From: Bradyrhizobium sp. CB1015
GTDB taxonomy: Bacteria; Pseudomonadota; Alphaproteobacteria; Rhizobiales; Xanthobacteraceae
Assembly: GCF_025200925.1 (NCBI RefSeq)
Contig: NZ_CP104174.1
Span: forward strand, 4,340,001-4,404,000
Direction: 5' to 3'
Length of the DNA: 64,000 nt
Made by a program: the position numbers and the translations under genes. Shown in pieces: positions 30,945 through 34,891 of the stretch (the stretch's first letter is position 1; each line of letters opens with the position of its first letter). The notes under the pieces were generated by a model. It worked only from the letters and a program-made list of their open reading frames with translations, had not been told where the DNA came from and ran no database searches.

Positions 30945-32285
30945 TCAATCCTTCCACGGATCGAACTCGCCTTCGCCGGCCATAGCGACGGCGAACGGCC
31001 GCAGCGTGTGCAGCACGCGCACGGTGCCGGCGTGCTGCGCCAGCACGTCGGGCAGGCGGCGATAGGCCATCGGGCTCTCGTCGAGGTCGGCGCCGATCAA
31101 GGTGACGCCGCGCTCGTTCAGCCAGCGGTCCATCTCGTCGCGCGAGAAGCGCCGCTTCGCCTCCCGTCGTCCGAACAGGCGGCCGGCGCCGTGCACGGTC
31201 GAGTAGAGCGAGGCCTTGGCTTCGGGGCTGTCGACGCCTTCGAGAATGACGGCGTCGTCGCCCATGGAGCCGCCGACGAACCCCTTCTGGCCGGGAAACG
31301 CCGGCGTCGCGCCCTTTCGCACCACCCACAAATCCTTGCCGTCGTGAGTCTCACGCCAGGCATAATTGTGGTGGTTGTGCACGCTCTCGATGACGCTGCC
31401 GCCGATGATCTGGCGGACGCGCTCGACCACCCACTCGCGGCCCGCATAGGCGTAACGTCCGGCGAGCTGCATCGCCGCGATGTAGCGGCGGCCGAGCTCG
31501 CTGTCCTCGTCGACCACGGCGGGCGGGACGTTCATGCCGTCCTTGCCGCCGGCAGCCTTGAGGTAGCGCGTCGCGGAGGTGTGTCCGAGGCCGCGGCTGC
31601 CGAAGTGGACGCCGATCCAGACGAAGCCTTCCTCGTCGCGCATGAGATCGACATAGTGGTTGCCCGATCCGACCGTGCCGAGCTGCTTCACCGCCTTCTG
31701 ACGGTAGTCCTCCATGTCGCTTTCGCGCCAGGCGTCGCCGTCGTCGAACAGGTCGTGCTCGGCCCGTTCCGCATTGGCACGGCCGACGCCGAACGAGATC
31801 ACCTTGGCGACGTCGCGGATGATCGTGGGAGCGATCTCCGCAATGTCGTCGAAGCGGGTGTCGAGCCGGGCCGCCATGTTGCCGCAGCCGATGTCGAAGC
31901 CGACGCCGGAGATGCTGATCTGCTTCTCATAGGCGATGACCCCGCCGACCGGCTGGGCGTAGCCGAGATGGCCGTCGGCGCAGATCACGCCGGTGACGAC
32001 ATTGCCGATCGCCATGCAATTGCGCATCTGCGCGATGGTCGCGTCCTCGTGCGGGCCGAAGACCTTCAGCGGCGCGTTCTGGAATCGGGCATCCTGCGTC
32101 CGAAACTCGGCAATCGAGCTCGCGGTCGCATTGGCCTCACGGGCAAGATGCTCCTTGCGCGCGGCGTCCTTGTACAGGCACCAGGCCGGCTGGCCGCGTC
32201 CTTCGCCGACGCGCGAGTCGGGATCGATACCGGCGGCGAGGCAGAGCTCGCGGGCGCGCTCCATGTAGGGATCGGGTCGTCGCAT
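30945..32285 (-). CDS. rtcB: RtcB-type RNA-splicing/repair ligase
   Basis: A 446-residue RtcB ligase, which joins RNA 2',3'-cyclic phosphate or 3'-phosphate ends to 5'-hydroxyl ends using GTP and Mn2+. Family motifs in order are ICADGHLGYAQPVGGVIAY, GFDIGCGNMAAR (Cys metal ligand), GSGNHYVDL, VHFGSRGLGH, SVHNHHNYAW, RKGATPAFPGQKGFVGGSMG and the guanylylated histidine in STVHGAGR. It is downstream of and in the same direction as a Ro60-type gene and four tRNA-like RNA units, which makes RNA repair or surveillance the likely role. Neither an RtcA cyclase nor an RtcR regulator is adjacent. Confidence 0.95.
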   Translation of the reverse strand: MRRPDPYMERARELCLAAGIDPDSRVGEGRGQPAWCLYKDAARKEHLAREANATASSIAEFRTQDARFQNAPLKVFGPHEDATIAQMRNCMAIGNVVTGVICADGHLGYAQPVGGVIAYEKQISISGVGFDIGCGNMAARLDTRFDDIAEIAPTIIRDVAKVISFGVGRANAERAEHDLFDDGDAWRESDMEDYRQKAVKQLGTVGSGNHYVDLMRDEEGFVWIGVHFGSRGLGHTSATRYLKAAGGKDGMNVPPAVVDEDSELGRRYIAAMQLAGRYAYAGREWVVERVRQIIGGSVIESVHNHHNYAWRETHDGKDLWVVRKGATPAFPGQKGFVGGSMGDDAVILEGVDSPEAKASLYSTVHGAGRLFGRREAKRRFSRDEMDRWLNERGVTLIGADLDESPMAYRRLPDVLAQHAGTVRVLHTLRPFAVAMAGEGEFDPWKD

Positions 32286-32394: not shown

Positions 32395-33720
32395 TCAGTT
32401 CAACGCCGTCTCCGACGCCGCGATCCACGCGACGACGGCCTCGGAGAAGCCGTTGACGCGGGTCCAGGCGCCGTGACCGACACCGTGCTGATACGAGGCC
32501 ACGTTGACCATGGTGCCGCGCGCCTTGGGCTCGGGCACCTGGTCGTGGCTCTGCTCGTCGGTGAAGACGATCAGGCGATCGCCCTTGCGGTCGATCTCCG
32601 TCACAGCCTTGCCGAGATACGTTCCGCCATGCGGCTGCGAGTTGATGATCCCGTCTCGAAGCGCGAAGCCGCGGCGGGGCGGGACCTTCACGACCTCATT
32701 GGAGAAGGTGAAGATCTCGACCTCGTCGCAGATCTCGCGCGCGAGGATGGCAAGGCCACACGCCGCCTCCGCACGCGTCATTTCCGACTGCGCGGAGAGG
32801 GTCGCGAACATCGAGCCCGACACGTCGATCAGGAGCCGGGTTCGGCCCGGAAGCCGCACATGGTCCTTGATCGACTTGAGCATCGCAGCCTCGAGCTCGG
32901 GCTCGAAGTCCGGCGCATAACGCGCCGCCGTGATGAAGCGATAGGGAAGGATACGATCCGTCCGCATCGCCTCGATCGCGCCTGCGATGGTCTCGCGCGG
33001 GACCTGCGCAGTCTGCATCAGGCGCAGATTGCGCAGCAGCGCGAGGCCGCCGAGCTTCCGCTCGGCGATCAGCCGCTCGAAGGTCTCGCGCTTGTTCTTG
33101 CCGGCCGAGAGCGAAACCTCCCAGGTGTCGGGGGAGGCGAGCTCGCCGTCGACGAGCTGCTTCCACACCTTGGCCTGATCGGCATCTTTCGGCTTGGCGT
33201 GCACCAGGAACAACACGTCCCTGATGCGCACCGCGCCGTCGCGGTCCCACTTGGCGAGCTGATAGGCGTCGAACCTGGTCAGTGCCCGGGCAAGACCCTT
33301 CTTGACCTGCGCCGAGACCGGCTGACGCTTGCGCTGCTGCATCGGCCCCAGCGCATCCGCCCAGTAGATCGCGAGCAGCTCCGTCATCTCGTCGGGACGC
33401 TGGATCACCTCAGCGAGCGTATCGGCGACGAGGGCGCGGTGCTTCTCGTTCCGTGCCATCTCGCGGATGACGAGGAGCGGTGCGTGCCGCAGCTTCATCA
33501 CCTCGCGCGCCTCGATCGCAAGCTGCGCGACGCGCTCCGGCGCGACCATGGGCACGAGGGCCTTGATGCGGTCTGCGATCGCAACGCCGTCCTCGTAGAA
33601 CTGGTCCTCCCACAGAAGGCAGTTCATCAGTGCCCGCTTCAGCTCCATCTCGGGCGTGAAGCGCCTTGCACGCGCGCCCTCCCGCGTGAAGGCGCGAACG
33701 ATCTTGTTGAGCCTGACCAT
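32395..33720 (-). CDS. rsr: TROVE/vWA protein, bacterial Ro60 (Rsr) orthologue
   Basis: A 441-residue ring-shaped RNA-binding protein. The N-terminal TROVE HEAT-repeat region includes ELKRALMNCLLWEDQFYEDG and LAIEAREVMKLRHAPLLVIREMAR. The C-terminal von Willebrand A-like domain carries the metal-ion-dependent adhesion site DVSGSM at about residue 300 and DRLIVFTDEQSHD. Bacterial Ro60 proteins bind Y RNAs and assist RNA maturation and decay under stress. Four tRNA-like RNA units end just 44 nt upstream, and a strong ribosome site (GGAGGAGG) precedes the ATG. rtcB lies downstream, so the locus forms one RNA-repair/surveillance operon. Confidence 0.93.
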   Translation of the reverse strand: MVRLNKIVRAFTREGARARRFTPEMELKRALMNCLLWEDQFYEDGVAIADRIKALVPMVAPERVAQLAIEAREVMKLRHAPLLVIREMARNEKHRALVADTLAEVIQRPDEMTELLAIYWADALGPMQQRKRQPVSAQVKKGLARALTRFDAYQLAKWDRDGAVRIRDVLFLVHAKPKDADQAKVWKQLVDGELASPDTWEVSLSAGKNKRETFERLIAERKLGGLALLRNLRLMQTAQVPRETIAGAIEAMRTDRILPYRFITAARYAPDFEPELEAAMLKSIKDHVRLPGRTRLLIDVSGSMFATLSAQSEMTRAEAACGLAILAREICDEVEIFTFSNEVVKVPPRRGFALRDGIINSQPHGGTYLGKAVTEIDRKGDRLIVFTDEQSHDQVPEPKARGTMVNVASYQHGVGHGAWTRVNGFSEAVVAWIAASETALN

Positions 33721-33763
33721 GACGGCCTCCTCCTGGGTTGATCGGGGACATGAAAGGGGTGCC

Positions 33764-33891
33764 GGGGAACAAGCGAGGCTGTCCTGCCCACGAGGGGCTC
33801 CACATGCTCTACCGCTGAGCTACGGACTTCCGTCCGGAAGGAGTCGAACCTTCGACAGTGTGATCACGAAGTAACAGCGCTCTTCACCACC
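33764..33891 (-). ncRNA. tRNA-like Y RNA candidate, unit 4 (nearest Ro60 gene)
   Basis: About 128 nt. Opens with GGTGGTGAAG (33891-33882), a 10-nt loop ending CTGTTA, then CTTCG, forming the common 5' hairpin. A T-arm with GAAGG/CCTTC stem and TTCGACT loop is at 33837-33853. An acceptor-like stem CGGAC/GTCCG closed by a GGAA tetraloop follows at 33823-33836, then TA and a canonical D-arm GCTCAGCGGTAGAGC. Ends with CGCTTGTTCCCC. The acceptor ends are joined, so it is not a normal tRNA. 44 nt downstream is the Ro60 start. Confidence 0.75.
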
Positions 33892-33916
33892 GGCGGTGGC
33901 TAAGGGGACACGATCC

Positions 33917-34062
33917 GGGAACAGGCGATTGCTGTGACCCGACGAGCCGAAGCTCGCCGGAAAGCGCTCTATCCTCTGAGCTACCGGTGCATGGGACACC
34001 GGGCGGGATTCGAACCCGCGACCTCTCGCGTTGCAGGCGAAGTAACAGAAATCTTCACCACG
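33917..34062 (-). ncRNA. tRNA-like Y RNA candidate, unit 3 (most tRNA-like)
   Basis: About 146 nt. After the 5' hairpin (GGTGAAG paired with CTTCGCC, 7 bp) come a T-arm with GCGGG/CCCGC stem and TTCGAAT loop (34003-34019), the acceptor 3' strand CCGGTGT, a 5-nt linker CCCAT, and the acceptor 5' strand GCACCGG. These two strands form a 7-bp stem with one G-U pair. Then follow TA, a D-arm with GCTC/GAGC stem (33966-33981) and a 9-bp hairpin capped by TTCG at 33939-33960. The unit ends TCGCCTGTTCCC. The halves of a tRNA are thus present in swapped order. Confidence 0.78.
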
Positions 34063-34079
34063 GACGTGATGGGGTTGGC

Positions 34080-34196
34080 GGGGAACGATCGATGCTGTTG
34101 CTGCCCTTGCGGGCGATCCGCCTTTCGGCGCGCGGGAGTCGAACCCGCTCGGCGCAGTTGCGCCGTCACCATGAAGTAACAGACACCTTCACCACC
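34080..34196 (-). ncRNA. tRNA-like Y RNA candidate, unit 2
   Basis: About 117 nt. 5' hairpin from GGTGGTGAAG with loop GTGTCTGTTA and CTTCA; here a T-A pair replaces the T-G pair of the other units, a compensatory difference. A small GGCGC-AACT-GCGCC hairpin precedes the T-arm (34132-34148, GCGGG/CCCGC with TTCGACT loop). The acceptor-like stem is shortened to CGCC/GGCG closed by GAAA, and the D-arm position is filled by GCCC-GCAA-GGGC. The unit ends GATCGTTCCCC. Confidence 0.7.
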
Positions 34197-34237
34197 GCCA
34201 GGCCGGTGCTCTCGCATCGGCCCTTGATGGGTACGCT

Positions 34238-34375
34238 GGGGAACAGGCGATACCGCCTTTTTGGGATGGCAACCAAGTGTCCTTCCACCTGTGACAGCAG
34301 CGCAGAGCGCGCAAGTCAGAGGCGGAATTCGAGCCCGCTCTTCCATCGTGCGAAGTATTCGATATCCTCACCACC
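34238..34375 (-). ncRNA. tRNA-like Y RNA candidate, unit 1 (most divergent)
   Basis: About 138 nt. 5' hairpin from GGTGGTGAGG with loop ATATCGAATA and CTTCGC. T-arm GCGGG/TCCGC with loop CTCGAAT at 34322-34338. The following part no longer shows a clear acceptor or D-arm; instead it holds GCGC-TCT-GCGC and GGCG-GTAT-CGCC hairpins. It ends with the shared TCGCCTGTTCCCC. It is recognisable as a family member by both ends and the T-arm. Confidence 0.6.
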
Positions 34376-34413
34376 AGCGTCGGTTGAGCCGCGACCATCC
34401 GCGGCAAACCGAG

Positions 34414-34497
34414 TTACAATAATTCGATCGCGGCGCTGTCGACGCGCCGCATGTTGCGAACCATCGGGGTTCGCTCTGCCATCGGTATCCGGCTCAT
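34414..34497 (-). CDS. Possible 27-residue peptide upstream of the RNA array
   Basis: A short frame beginning MSRIPMAERTPMVRN and ending AAIELL, with GGAGGG 9 nt before the ATG, just upstream of RNA unit 1 and after the terminator at 34621-34655. It could be a leader peptide of the RNA-array operon. No family is recognised and chance cannot be excluded. Confidence 0.3.
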   Translation of the reverse strand: MSRIPMAERTPMVRNMRRVDSAAIELL

Positions 34498-34620
34498 CGC
34501 CTCGTTCCCTCCGGCAGGCCCCGCGCGCTTGGGCACGCGCCTTCTCAGCGCGAGCCCGGGGATCCGGGTCTCCCGTTCCGGCCAGTGCCGGGGTGTTCGG
34601 TTGATCCGCGCGGCGGGCAA

Positions 34621-34655
34621 CAAAAAACCCTCCGGAGCGGCAGGCTCGGGAGGGT
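34621..34655 (-). terminator. Strong intrinsic terminator upstream of the tRNA-like array
   Basis: Outer arms ACCCTCC (34627-34633) and GGAGGGT (34649-34655), continued inward after one G-G mismatch by GAGC/GCTC. On the minus strand the stem is followed by six T. It must end a minus-strand transcript, yet no convincing protein gene lies between it and 34891. Confidence 0.85.
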
Positions 34656-34821
34656 CCGTGAGAAGCGGACTGTCGATCTTGCGGTCAGGCAAGATCGCTC
34701 CCATGAGCCGGGCATGCGCAATCGAATAGCTTGGGGCTATTCGGCATGCGGACAATTCTTTCGTAGCGGTACGACATCGCTCGGTTCATGGTGTCTGTCG
34801 CAAACGGAAGTGCTTGCGAGG
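34622..34821 (-). ncRNA. Candidate small RNA or attenuator leader
   Basis: The roughly 200-nt segment between a sigma-70-like promoter (34828-34856) and a strong terminator, all on the minus strand. It contains two further perfect hairpins: CGATCTTGC/GCAAGATCG with 6-nt loop at 34674-34697, and CGAATAG/CTATTCG flanked by GCATGC on both sides near 34710-34750. No protein gene with a ribosome site is present. It could be an independent small RNA, or a leader whose terminator controls entry into the RNA-repair operon. Confidence 0.5.
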
Positions 34822-34827
34822 GCGCGG

Positions 34828-34856
34828 GACATACGCCCGCAACTTGCGGATGTCAA
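34828..34856 (-). promoter_or_regulatory. Sigma-70-like promoter of the candidate small RNA
   Basis: On the minus strand, TTGACA at 34856-34851, a 17-bp spacer and TATGTC at 34833-34828. The -35 hexamer is a perfect consensus and the spacing is optimal; the -10 is a moderate match. Transcription would start near 34821 and run towards the terminator at 34655-34621. Confidence 0.6.
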
Positions 34857-34891
34857 GCGATACGCGCGCGGAAACTGAAATTGACGGACAC

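What the first reader, a model, noticed from the sequence alone, without database searches (positions are those of the whole stretch)
33764..34375. Four tandem tRNA-mimicking RNAs upstream of a Ro60-RtcB operon
Four collinear units with shared ends (5' hairpin beginning GTGGTGAAG or GTGGTGAGG with a 10-nt loop, 3' end TGTTCCC) and a T-arm lie directly upstream of the Ro60-type gene, followed by rtcB. Bacterial Y RNAs of the YrlA type are known to bind Ro60 and to contain a tRNA-like module, usually one or two copies next to rsr. A tandem array of four, leading straight into the mRNA for both protein and ligase, looks like an expanded RNA-repair or surveillance cassette, with several different tRNA-like baits in one locus. 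The Y RNA assignment is inference; the units, their order and the neighbouring genes are visible directly.
Basis: partly seen in the sequence, partly recalled or inferred. Interest (0 to 1): 0.88.

Follow-up and report, generated by a model that had tools for sequence, protein, structure and literature searches.

The report
Y RNA array with peptide-leader switch
A soil bacterium carries four Y RNAs, two of them full tRNA mimics, in front of its Ro60 and RtcB RNA-care genes, and just upstream lies what looks like a switch that tests whether a short peptide can be translated before letting the whole set be transcribed.

Summary
Four collinear minus-strand units (33761-34380) precede a TROVE/Ro60 gene and rtcB in a Bradyrhizobium-type genome. 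They are Y RNAs of the YrlA kind: units 3 and 4 carry a circularly permuted tRNA-like module, unit 2 a T arm and hairpin, unit 1 a variant T arm. The array is not exceptional: all four units are called in 28 of 51 related loci, each position an orthologous type, and 19 of 29 more distant loci have 3-5 called.

The surprising part lies upstream (34430-34860). A leader ORF of about 34 codons ends in a hairpin apex (stop triplet in 36 of 36 chosen loci, 11.3 expected), inside mutually exclusive antiterminator and terminator structures. This looks like ribosome-dependent attenuation of the Y RNA-Ro60-RtcB operon; no RtcR or RtcA was found in the genome. A second leader of this design lies downstream in 7 of 80 loci; the next gene is a MATE efflux gene wherever tested (6 of 6, one in a further genome). 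A conserved RNA without Rfam match sits between switch and array. Regulation and its direction are inferred; no expression or binding data were available.

The parts
34851..34856 (-). -35-like element TTGACA of a conserved promoter-like site
   Evidence: Conserved before GCGTAT in the alignment of 50 Bradyrhizobium-type loci; a similar TTGACTT...CGTA pattern stands before the second (MATE) leaders (read). The consensus scan found no sigma-70 site here.
34827..34836 (-). -10-like element GCGTATGTCC
   Evidence: Conservation; position. Not found by the consensus scan.
34798..34820 (-). 5' hairpin of the leader, just before the leader start codon
   Evidence: Complementary ends with matching changes in relatives (read by eye; not counted formally).
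34685..34789 (-). Leader ORF, 34 codons, MNRAMSYRYERIVRMPNSPKLFDCACPAHGSDLA; stop codon in the HP1 apex
   Evidence: An in-frame ATG 85-125 nt before the stop, without a stop between, in 57 of 58 loci (46 distinct sequences); the other two frames are open over the same span in 0 and 9 of 46; 44 of 46 are exactly 105 nt. L057 is the exception.
34698..34709 (-). Antiterminator 5' arm GGCTCATGGGAG, inside the leader ORF
   Evidence: Complementary to 34643-34652; at most 5 of 200 shuffles have as low a duplex energy in 31 of 36 loci.
34674..34697 (-). HP1, hairpin that holds the leader stop codon in its apex
   Evidence: All 9 pairs have two-sided changes; stop triplet in the apex in 36 of 36 loci, 11.3 expected from shuffled letters.
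34654..34670 (-). HP2, small hairpin inside the antiterminator form
   Evidence: 4 of 5 pairs with two-sided changes, 70% of cells paired.
34622..34655 (-). Intrinsic terminator with T run; its 5' arm (34643-34652) is also the antiterminator 3' arm
   Evidence: CCCUCC/GGAGGG in 36 of 36 loci, outer pair AU in 20 and CG in 16; the loci were located through GGAGGG and the T run, so only the 5' arm is an independent result. The simple terminator scan found none here, probably because the stem has a mismatch.
34430..34576 (-). Module M: conserved structured RNA between terminator and array (hairpin with loop GACCCGGA, possible pseudoknot to CGGG, further stems)
   Evidence: 50 invariant columns in 24 sequences (located by a 15-base motif of M, up to 3 mismatches); 12 pairs with two-sided changes, 0 of 500 shuffles as high; the pseudoknot pairs themselves never vary. 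Model R2 at 34453-34576. No Rfam match on this strand within M up to E 10.
34233..34380 (-). Y RNA unit 1 (variant T arm 34322-34338; no D arm)
34076..34200 (-). Y RNA unit 2 (T arm 34132-34148, acceptor-like hairpin 34119-34131; no D arm)
33909..34068 (-). Y RNA unit 3 (T arm 34003-34019, acceptor-like hairpin 33984-34002, D arm 33966-33983)
   Evidence: RF02553 YrlA 39.9 bits, E 5.5e-7, gathering 69; covariation; positions.
33761..33894 (-). Y RNA unit 4 (T arm 33837-33853, acceptor-like hairpin 33823-33836, D arm 33806-33822)
   Evidence: RF02553 YrlA 34.4 bits, E 2.3e-5; covariation; positions.
32395..33720 (-). Ro60/Rsr-type TROVE-vWA protein (441 aa)
   Evidence: PF05731 E 3.8e-13; PDB TROVE proteins 9l5y and 9kop, E 2.8e-25 and 2.9e-25, over residues 12-397.
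30945..32285 (-). RtcB-family RNA ligase (446 aa), the only RtcB match in the genome
   Evidence: PF01139 E 1.1e-66; single match; PDB RtcB 4dwr E 1.5e-29.

Best explanation
One minus-strand transcription unit: promoter, leader ORF with attenuator, module M, four Y RNAs, rsr (Ro60), rtcB. Shown by sequence comparison: the four Y RNAs, two with permuted tRNA-like modules; the conserved leader frame ending in hairpin HP1; two predicted structures that exclude each other; co-occurrence with Ro60. Inferred: RNA polymerase and a leading ribosome are coupled. If the ribosome reaches the stop codon it covers HP1 and part of the antiterminator 5' arm, the terminator forms and transcription stops at about 34622. 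If translation stalls in roughly the first 20 codons (damaged or missing tRNAs, blocked ribosomes), the antiterminator forms first and polymerase reads through, producing Y RNAs, Ro60 and RtcB. The Y RNA ends bind Ro60, the tRNA-like heads recruit or compete for tRNA-binding factors, and RtcB religates broken RNAs. The switch would stand in for RtcR, which was not found in this genome. Split of belief: Y RNA identity about 0.93, leader-peptide attenuation about 0.75, induction by failing translation about 0.6.
For: Y RNA: 99.4% of 1421 pair cells kept, 16 of 25 pairs with two-sided changes, 205 such cells, 0 of 500 shuffles as high, slid controls 32-46% paired. The units had been picked by closing stem, T loop and D-arm motif; the three helices not used for picking (inner end-to-end stem, T stem, acceptor stem) hold 139 of the 205 cells. 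YrlA hits; positional orthology 28 of 28 for each unit. Leader frame. Stop triplet in the HP1 apex: 36 of 36, with 27 distinct apex sequences and all three stop codons used. HP1 covariation 9 of 9 pairs; terminator arms 36 of 36. Folding: antiterminator is the best fold before the terminator 3' arm exists in 36 of 36; with the ribosome-covered part removed the terminator is best in 36 of 36. Linkage: the leader DNA matches in 11 of 11 Ro60-positive and 0 of 25 Ro60-negative genomes of the genus, and model R1 hits before rsr in 69 of 80 loci (35 of these 69 were in the model). No RtcR or RtcA match in the genome. Same leader design before a MATE gene in 6 of 6 tested places.
Against: No transcript, translation or binding data. 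The complete uncovered RNA prefers the terminator in 34 of 36 loci, so the state without any translation is uncertain. Shuffled antiterminator 5' arms still gave 6 or more pairs in 817 of 1800 folds, and in 5 of 36 loci the duplex energy is not clearly better than shuffles. None of the 9 main antiterminator pairs has a two-sided change; their 3' arm is shared with the terminator. Leader codons 2-20 show more nonsynonymous than synonymous pairwise differences (2126 to 679, not independent counts), so the frame but not the peptide is conserved. No clear Shine-Dalgarno sequence before the leader start, and no consensus promoter found. Five other alphaproteobacterial Ro60 loci have no R1 match. 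L057 lacks a start codon in range; L037 and L072 have no leader. In the genus itself the Y RNA closing stems are 95-99% paired but hold only 15 two-sided cells in four units.
Confidence: 0.7

Rival explanations
1. The upstream stretch is a separate small RNA with its own promoter and terminator, and the Y RNA array is transcribed from an internal promoter; there is no switch.
For: A strong terminator ends the leader in 36 of 36 aligned loci; the complete RNA prefers the terminator in 34 of 36. In L087 the leader, module M and several Y units lie over 2 kb from rsr with opposite-strand ORFs between.
Against: An antiterminator arm complementary to the terminator arm is kept in loci where its letters change; the leader frame and its stop in the HP1 apex are kept; no conserved promoter-like element was seen between terminator and unit 1 (by eye).
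Confidence: 0.15
2. The leader is an attenuator, but the signal is not translation failure: Ro60, a Y RNA or another factor binds the leader and sets the fold (autoregulation).
For: The leader is tied to Ro60 loci; module M is a large conserved RNA next to it.
Against: A conserved ORF with the stop in the apex is not needed for protein binding; the same design stands before a MATE gene, which has no obvious link to Ro60 apart from being its neighbour.
Confidence: 0.12
3. The leader ORF encodes a functional small protein and the RNA structures are secondary.
For: Conserved frame and length.
Against: Amino acids in codons 2-20 change freely, and the conserved C-terminal residues coincide with the antiterminator arm and HP1.
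Confidence: 0.05
4. The four units are decayed tRNA genes or an ordinary tRNA-Cys locus, as ARAGORN and the Rfam tRNA model suggest.
For: ARAGORN calls one tRNA-Cys at 33992-34067 and Rfam tRNA scores 29.8 bits (gathering 29) there.
Against: That call uses the Ro60-type stem as an acceptor; the order T arm, closed acceptor hairpin, D arm is a permuted tRNA, and 57 aligned units share Y RNA ends and covarying stems.
Confidence: 0.02

Closest known systems
YrlA, bacterial Y RNA with tRNA-like domain (Rfam RF02553; Salmonella rsr-yrlBA-rtcBA operon)
   Same: T arm, closed acceptor hairpin and D arm in permuted order; ends pair with each other; next to rsr and rtcB.
   Different: Scores below the Rfam gathering threshold; four units instead of YrlA plus YrlB; two of the four are reduced; no RtcA or RtcR found in the genome.
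RtcR-controlled RNA repair operon (PMC7790460, passages seen)
   Same: Ro60, Y RNAs and RtcB in one operon.
   Different: RtcR, the activator that answers to damaged tRNAs, was not found in the genome; a leader-peptide attenuator may stand in its place.
Ribosome-dependent transcription attenuation (trp-type amino-acid leaders, recalled; uORF attenuators of antibiotic-resistance genes in gram-positives, as summarised in PMC12218461, passages seen)
   Same: Short ORF, competing antiterminator and intrinsic terminator, stalled ribosome predicted to give read-through.
   Different: No run of regulatory codons; the stop codon is in the apex of a hairpin nested inside the antiterminator; the target is a Y RNA and RNA-repair operon.
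S. meliloti DUF1127 uORF attenuation under tetracycline (PMC12218461, abstract and passages seen)
   Same: Alphaproteobacterial leader that monitors translation through a uORF.
   Different: [quoted passage not shown] this one has an intrinsic terminator and a predicted antiterminator.

Membership tests
Bacterial Y RNA (YrlA type) | Encoded next to a Ro60 (rsr) gene | tested here: met
   conserved in relatives.
Bacterial Y RNA (YrlA type) | 5' and 3' ends pair into a stem that carries the Ro60-binding site | tested here: met
   Closing stem 100% paired with two-sided changes at 5 of 5 pairs (units were picked partly by this stem); unpicked alignments by position are 95-99% paired with few two-sided changes. 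Inner end-to-end stem, not used for picking: 98.5% paired, 4 of 6 pairs with two-sided changes. Binding not tested.
Bacterial Y RNA (YrlA type) | tRNA-like module with T arm, acceptor-like hairpin and D arm | tested here: met
   Units 3 and 4. Units 1 and 2 lack the D arm and do not meet it on their own.
Bacterial Y RNA (YrlA type) | Match to Rfam RF02553 at or above its gathering score | tested here: not met
   39.9 and 34.4 bits against 69. This is a curated threshold, not a biological feature.
Bacterial Y RNA (YrlA type) | Binds Ro60 | not testable with these tools
   Needs pull-down.
Ro60/Rsr (TROVE) protein | TROVE domain with vWA domain | tested here: met
   PF05731 49.8 bits, cut-off 23; vWA_Ro60 23.7 bits, below its cut-off of 27.7. 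The NCBIfam Rsr equivalog scores 20 with a cut-off of 900, so it is a divergent member.
RtcR-regulated rtcBA RNA repair operon | RtcR activator gene in the genome | tested here: not met
   PF06956: 0 matches in the own genome; the control search rang in E. coli.
RtcR-regulated rtcBA RNA repair operon | RtcA cyclase | tested here: not met
   PF01137: 0 matches in the own genome; the control rang in 5 of 14.
Ribosome-dependent transcription attenuator | Short translated ORF | tested here: inconclusive
   Frame with a start in range in 57 of 58 loci; translation not shown, no clear Shine-Dalgarno sequence.
Ribosome-dependent transcription attenuator | Intrinsic terminator and an antiterminator that exclude each other | tested here: met
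   as predicted structures; the shuffled control is weak.
Ribosome-dependent transcription attenuator | Read-through changes with translation of the ORF | not testable with these tools
   Needs reporter or 3'-end mapping.

The most novel reading that the evidence does not exclude
Alphaproteobacteria without RtcR control RNA repair by a ribosome-monitoring attenuator: when a leader of about 34 codons cannot be translated, a burst of several distinct Y RNAs, some of them tRNA mimics, with Ro60 and RtcB is made, and in some lineages a second switch of the same design next door turns on a MATE efflux pump. Module M is a further non-coding RNA class of this response. RNA repair would then belong to a local translation-stress regulon rather than a DNA-damage response.
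Probability: 0.45. Interest if true: 0.86.

Novelty: new variant of a known kind. Interest (0 to 1): 0.7.

Why it matters
What turns on bacterial Ro60, Y RNAs and RtcB in species without RtcR is, as far as I know, open, as is what the tRNA-like heads do. A built-in translation sensor in the same transcript gives a direct, cheap test: slow or block translation and see whether Y RNAs, Ro60 and RtcB appear. The fixed order of four distinct Y RNA types, kept across related species, also argues that the units have separate jobs and are not redundant copies. Module M adds a conserved RNA of unknown role that can be tested beside them.

Tried and rejected
Rejected: an ordinary tRNA-Cys gene. The four-unit array as exceptional. 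A wider regulon from model R3: of its 3 matching genomes in 289, the hits in G234 and G321 lie at ordinary 3' ends of genes, so only G103 is real. PADLOC defence families: none for Ro60 or RtcB. An exact 27-base piece of module M in viral contigs: 0. Identity of module M: Rfam gave no match on its strand within it up to E 10; no assignment made. The first alignment of the upstream regions was wrong because several loci were reversed; redone. The first antiterminator folding control was weak; duplex energies were used beside it.

Literature: ten searches. The rows listed showed no paper on a leader-peptide attenuator of an rsr or rtcB operon, or on this array in Bradyrhizobium; several listings were capped (15 of 140, 12 of 281, 15 of 19, 10 of 18). 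Chen 2014, Sim and Wolin 2018 and Wang 2018 on bacterial Y RNAs are not held; what is said of them is recalled or taken from citing passages. PMC2965389 (passages by search terms) has no mention of RtcB, TROVE or Bradyrhizobium in its main text. Most subscription papers are not in the library, so absence from print is not shown.

Full report
Observation. The minus strand of the window carries four units between 34380 and 33761, each beginning near GTGGTGA and ending near GTTCCC, followed by a TROVE/Ro60 gene and rtcB. The genome is 8.41 Mb in one contig; the closest named records with this Ro60 gene are Bradyrhizobium. The finding's coordinates are right; the units reach 4-8 bases further at both ends.

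What the units are. Rfam YrlA (RF02553) matches unit 3 (39.9 bits, E 5.5e-7) and unit 4 (34.4 bits, E 2.3e-5), below its gathering score of 69. Both show T arm, then a closed acceptor-like hairpin, then D arm: a circularly permuted tRNA. Unit 2 has T arm and hairpin without D arm; unit 1 has a variant T arm. Fifty-seven tRNA-like units were aligned: two from the window and 55 chosen for diversity from the 109 listed. On a named structure 99.4% of 1421 cells pair, 205 cells have two-sided changes and no shuffle of 500 reaches any measure; partners slid by 1-3 columns give 32-46% paired. Two limits: the structure was drawn on the window's unit 4, and the 109 units had been picked by a closing stem of at least 5 pairs, a T-loop motif and a D-arm motif, so helices 1 and 5 are partly built in. 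Helices 2-4 (inner end-to-end stem, T stem, acceptor stem) were not used for picking; they are 98.5-100% paired and hold 139 of the 205 cells. Alignments made by position in up to 50 close loci, without picking, have closing stems 95-99% paired but only 15 two-sided cells, because they vary little.

Conservation. A motif-plus-stem caller finds four units in the window, and none in 85 of 88 shuffled upstream regions or 85 of 87 coding stretches. Of 51 distinct loci with rsr at least 85% identical, the window's own included, 28 have all four called; the other 23 have 1-3, many probably through the caller's strictness. In those 28 loci the best match of a unit in another locus always has the same position (28 of 28 for each of four); the loci are close relatives. 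Of 29 more distant loci (rsr 69-84% identical, some of them Bradyrhizobium, with enough upstream sequence) 19 have 3-5 units called, and the caller merges some. L134 has 7 called upstream of rsr, some short, and one false call inside rsr; L135 has four YrlA matches, the weakest at E 0.098. An array of four is thus ordinary for this group.

What lies upstream. Among 50 relatives the stretch 34860-34430 is in large part more conserved than units 1 and 2. Its DNA matches in 11 of 11 Ro60-positive and 0 of 25 Ro60-negative genomes of the genus; one of 24 other genomes had a 27-base match at E 6e-4. It has two parts. The first is a leader: promoter-like elements, a 5' hairpin, an ORF of 34 codons, hairpin HP1, hairpin HP2 and an intrinsic terminator. 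An in-frame ATG 85-125 nt before the stop, with no stop between, is present in 57 of 58 loci with rsr over 83% identical (46 distinct sequences; L057 is the exception); over the same span the other frames are open in 0 and 9 of 46, and 44 of 46 are exactly 105 nt long. For 36 chosen sequences (the window and 35 of the 69 loci with leaders, located through the terminator's GGAGGG and T run) the HP1 apex holds a stop triplet in 36 of 36, with all three stop codons and 27 different apex sequences; 11.3 would be expected from shuffled letters, and the apexes of HP2 and the terminator have 3 and 1. HP1 has two-sided changes at 9 of 9 pairs; the terminator arms are complementary in 36 of 36.

The switch. 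The last part of the ORF (34698-34709) is complementary to the terminator's 5' arm (34643-34652). Before the terminator's 3' arm is made, the antiterminator is the best fold in 36 of 36; with the stretch that a terminating ribosome would cover removed, the terminator is best in 36 of 36. In the window both full forms are nearly equal (-40.7 and -40.3 kcal/mol). Against this: the complete naked RNA, taken from the antiterminator arm on, prefers the terminator in 34 of 36; shuffled arms gave 6 or more pairs in 817 of 1800 folds; the duplex-energy control is clear in 31 of 36; and the main antiterminator pairs show no two-sided change.

Distribution. Model R1 (leader) hits upstream of rsr in 69 of 80 genome-contig loci, 34 of them not used in the model. 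Of the 11 without, L053, L061, L073 and L083 have less than 1 kb upstream, L097-L101 are acidobacterial by title, and L037 and L072 lack it despite longer upstream sequence. In 289 alphaproteobacterial genomes R1 and the module model R2 each match only the own genome and G103, both Ro60-positive; 7 of 289 have PF05731, and stretches around Ro60 in the other five have no R1 match up to E 5. The leader therefore belongs to one branch of Ro60 loci.

A second switch. Seven of 80 loci hold a second R1 match downstream of rtcB (L059, L064, L076, L077, L081, L083, L102; E 4.7e-9 to 0.015), with its own ORF and a stop soon after the antiterminator arm. The next gene is a MATE efflux protein in all 5 of these loci where it is held and was tested; L083 and L102 end too early. 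G103 also has a second match, and its next gene is MATE too. Two further genome hits of model R3 are ordinary 3' terminators. Shared control of an efflux gene and of RNA repair fits a translation-stress signal, but this is inference. The own genome gave no second match.

Module M. Between terminator and unit 1 lies a second conserved RNA (34430-34576), found by R2 in 59 of 80 loci (23 of them in the model, one cut by a contig end). It is absent from eleven loci that have the leader, 8 of which are Hyphomonadaceae by title. It has 50 invariant columns in 24 sequences, which were located by a 15-base motif of it, covarying stems, and an invariant CCCG/CGGG complement that could be a pseudoknot; Rfam offers no match on its strand. 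It lacks Y RNA ends. My best guess, at low confidence, is a separate stable RNA or 5' cap of the array transcript.

Operon context. The genome has one RtcB match and none for RtcA or RtcR. In Salmonella the operon is activated by RtcR in response to damaged tRNAs (PMC7790460, passages seen); here a leader that reports on translation could do the equivalent. In L076 and L077 the leader, module M and two called Y units are separated by an ammonium transporter gene from the last Y unit, rsr and rtcB. In L087 they are over 2 kb away, with opposite-strand ORFs between, which does not fit one transcript there.

Assessment. The Y RNA array is a new member of a known kind and common in its group. The leader-peptide switch on a Y RNA-Ro60-RtcB operon, and its twin on a MATE gene, are the surprising part; the listings of ten searches of the held library show no report of it, but several listings were capped and most subscription papers are missing.

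Noticed in passing
L059:6921-7032, L064:6805-6920, L076:7676-7792, L077:7437-7549, L081:7652-7758, L083:5597-5709, L102:9188-9297, L134:2722-2824 (-): Second leader of the same design downstream of rtcB; the next gene is a MATE efflux protein in the six places tested.
   Followed up: partly
L138:2415-2496, L138:2300-2399, L139:3019-3086: Near other alphaproteobacterial Ro60 genes, RNAs match the Rfam model of a nematode small RNA (RF01656; best 38.2 bits with gathering 38, the others below it), including GGAG...GGUUAUC and the 3' pairing strand. From memory these nematode RNAs are Y RNA homologues, so the Ro60 site may be shared very widely.
   Followed up: partly
L076:2472-3719, L077:2003-3586: An ammonium transporter gene (PF00909) sits inside the Y RNA locus, between leader-proximal Y units and the last Y unit before rsr. 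In L077 the domain starts at residue 124 of the listed ORF, so the true start is later.
   Followed up: no
window 33992-34067 (-): ARAGORN and the Rfam tRNA model call a tRNA-Cys here; it is part of Y RNA unit 3, so automated annotation may carry a false tRNA gene.
   Followed up: yes
window 34414-34497 (-): A 27-codon ORF with a GGAGG before it overlaps module M; relatives show non-triplet gaps and a lost start codon there, so it is probably chance.
   Followed up: partly
window 32395-33720 (-): The Ro60 protein is divergent: the only significant PDB relatives by sequence are two TROVE proteins, 9l5y and 9kop; the Rsr equivalog of NCBIfam scores far below its cut-off.
   Followed up: no
L057: The leader ORF lacks a start codon in range although attenuator and module M models match well.
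   Followed up: no
L037: Only the last Y unit is called; leader and module M models do not match upstream of an otherwise similar rsr.
   Followed up: no
L087:451-1536: Leader, module M and at least three called Y units lie over 2 kb upstream of the Y unit and rsr, with opposite-strand ORFs between: possibly a detached Y RNA operon.
   Followed up: partly
L134:5904-7038 (-): Seven Y units called in one locus of a genome outside the family, with both leaders.
   Followed up: partly
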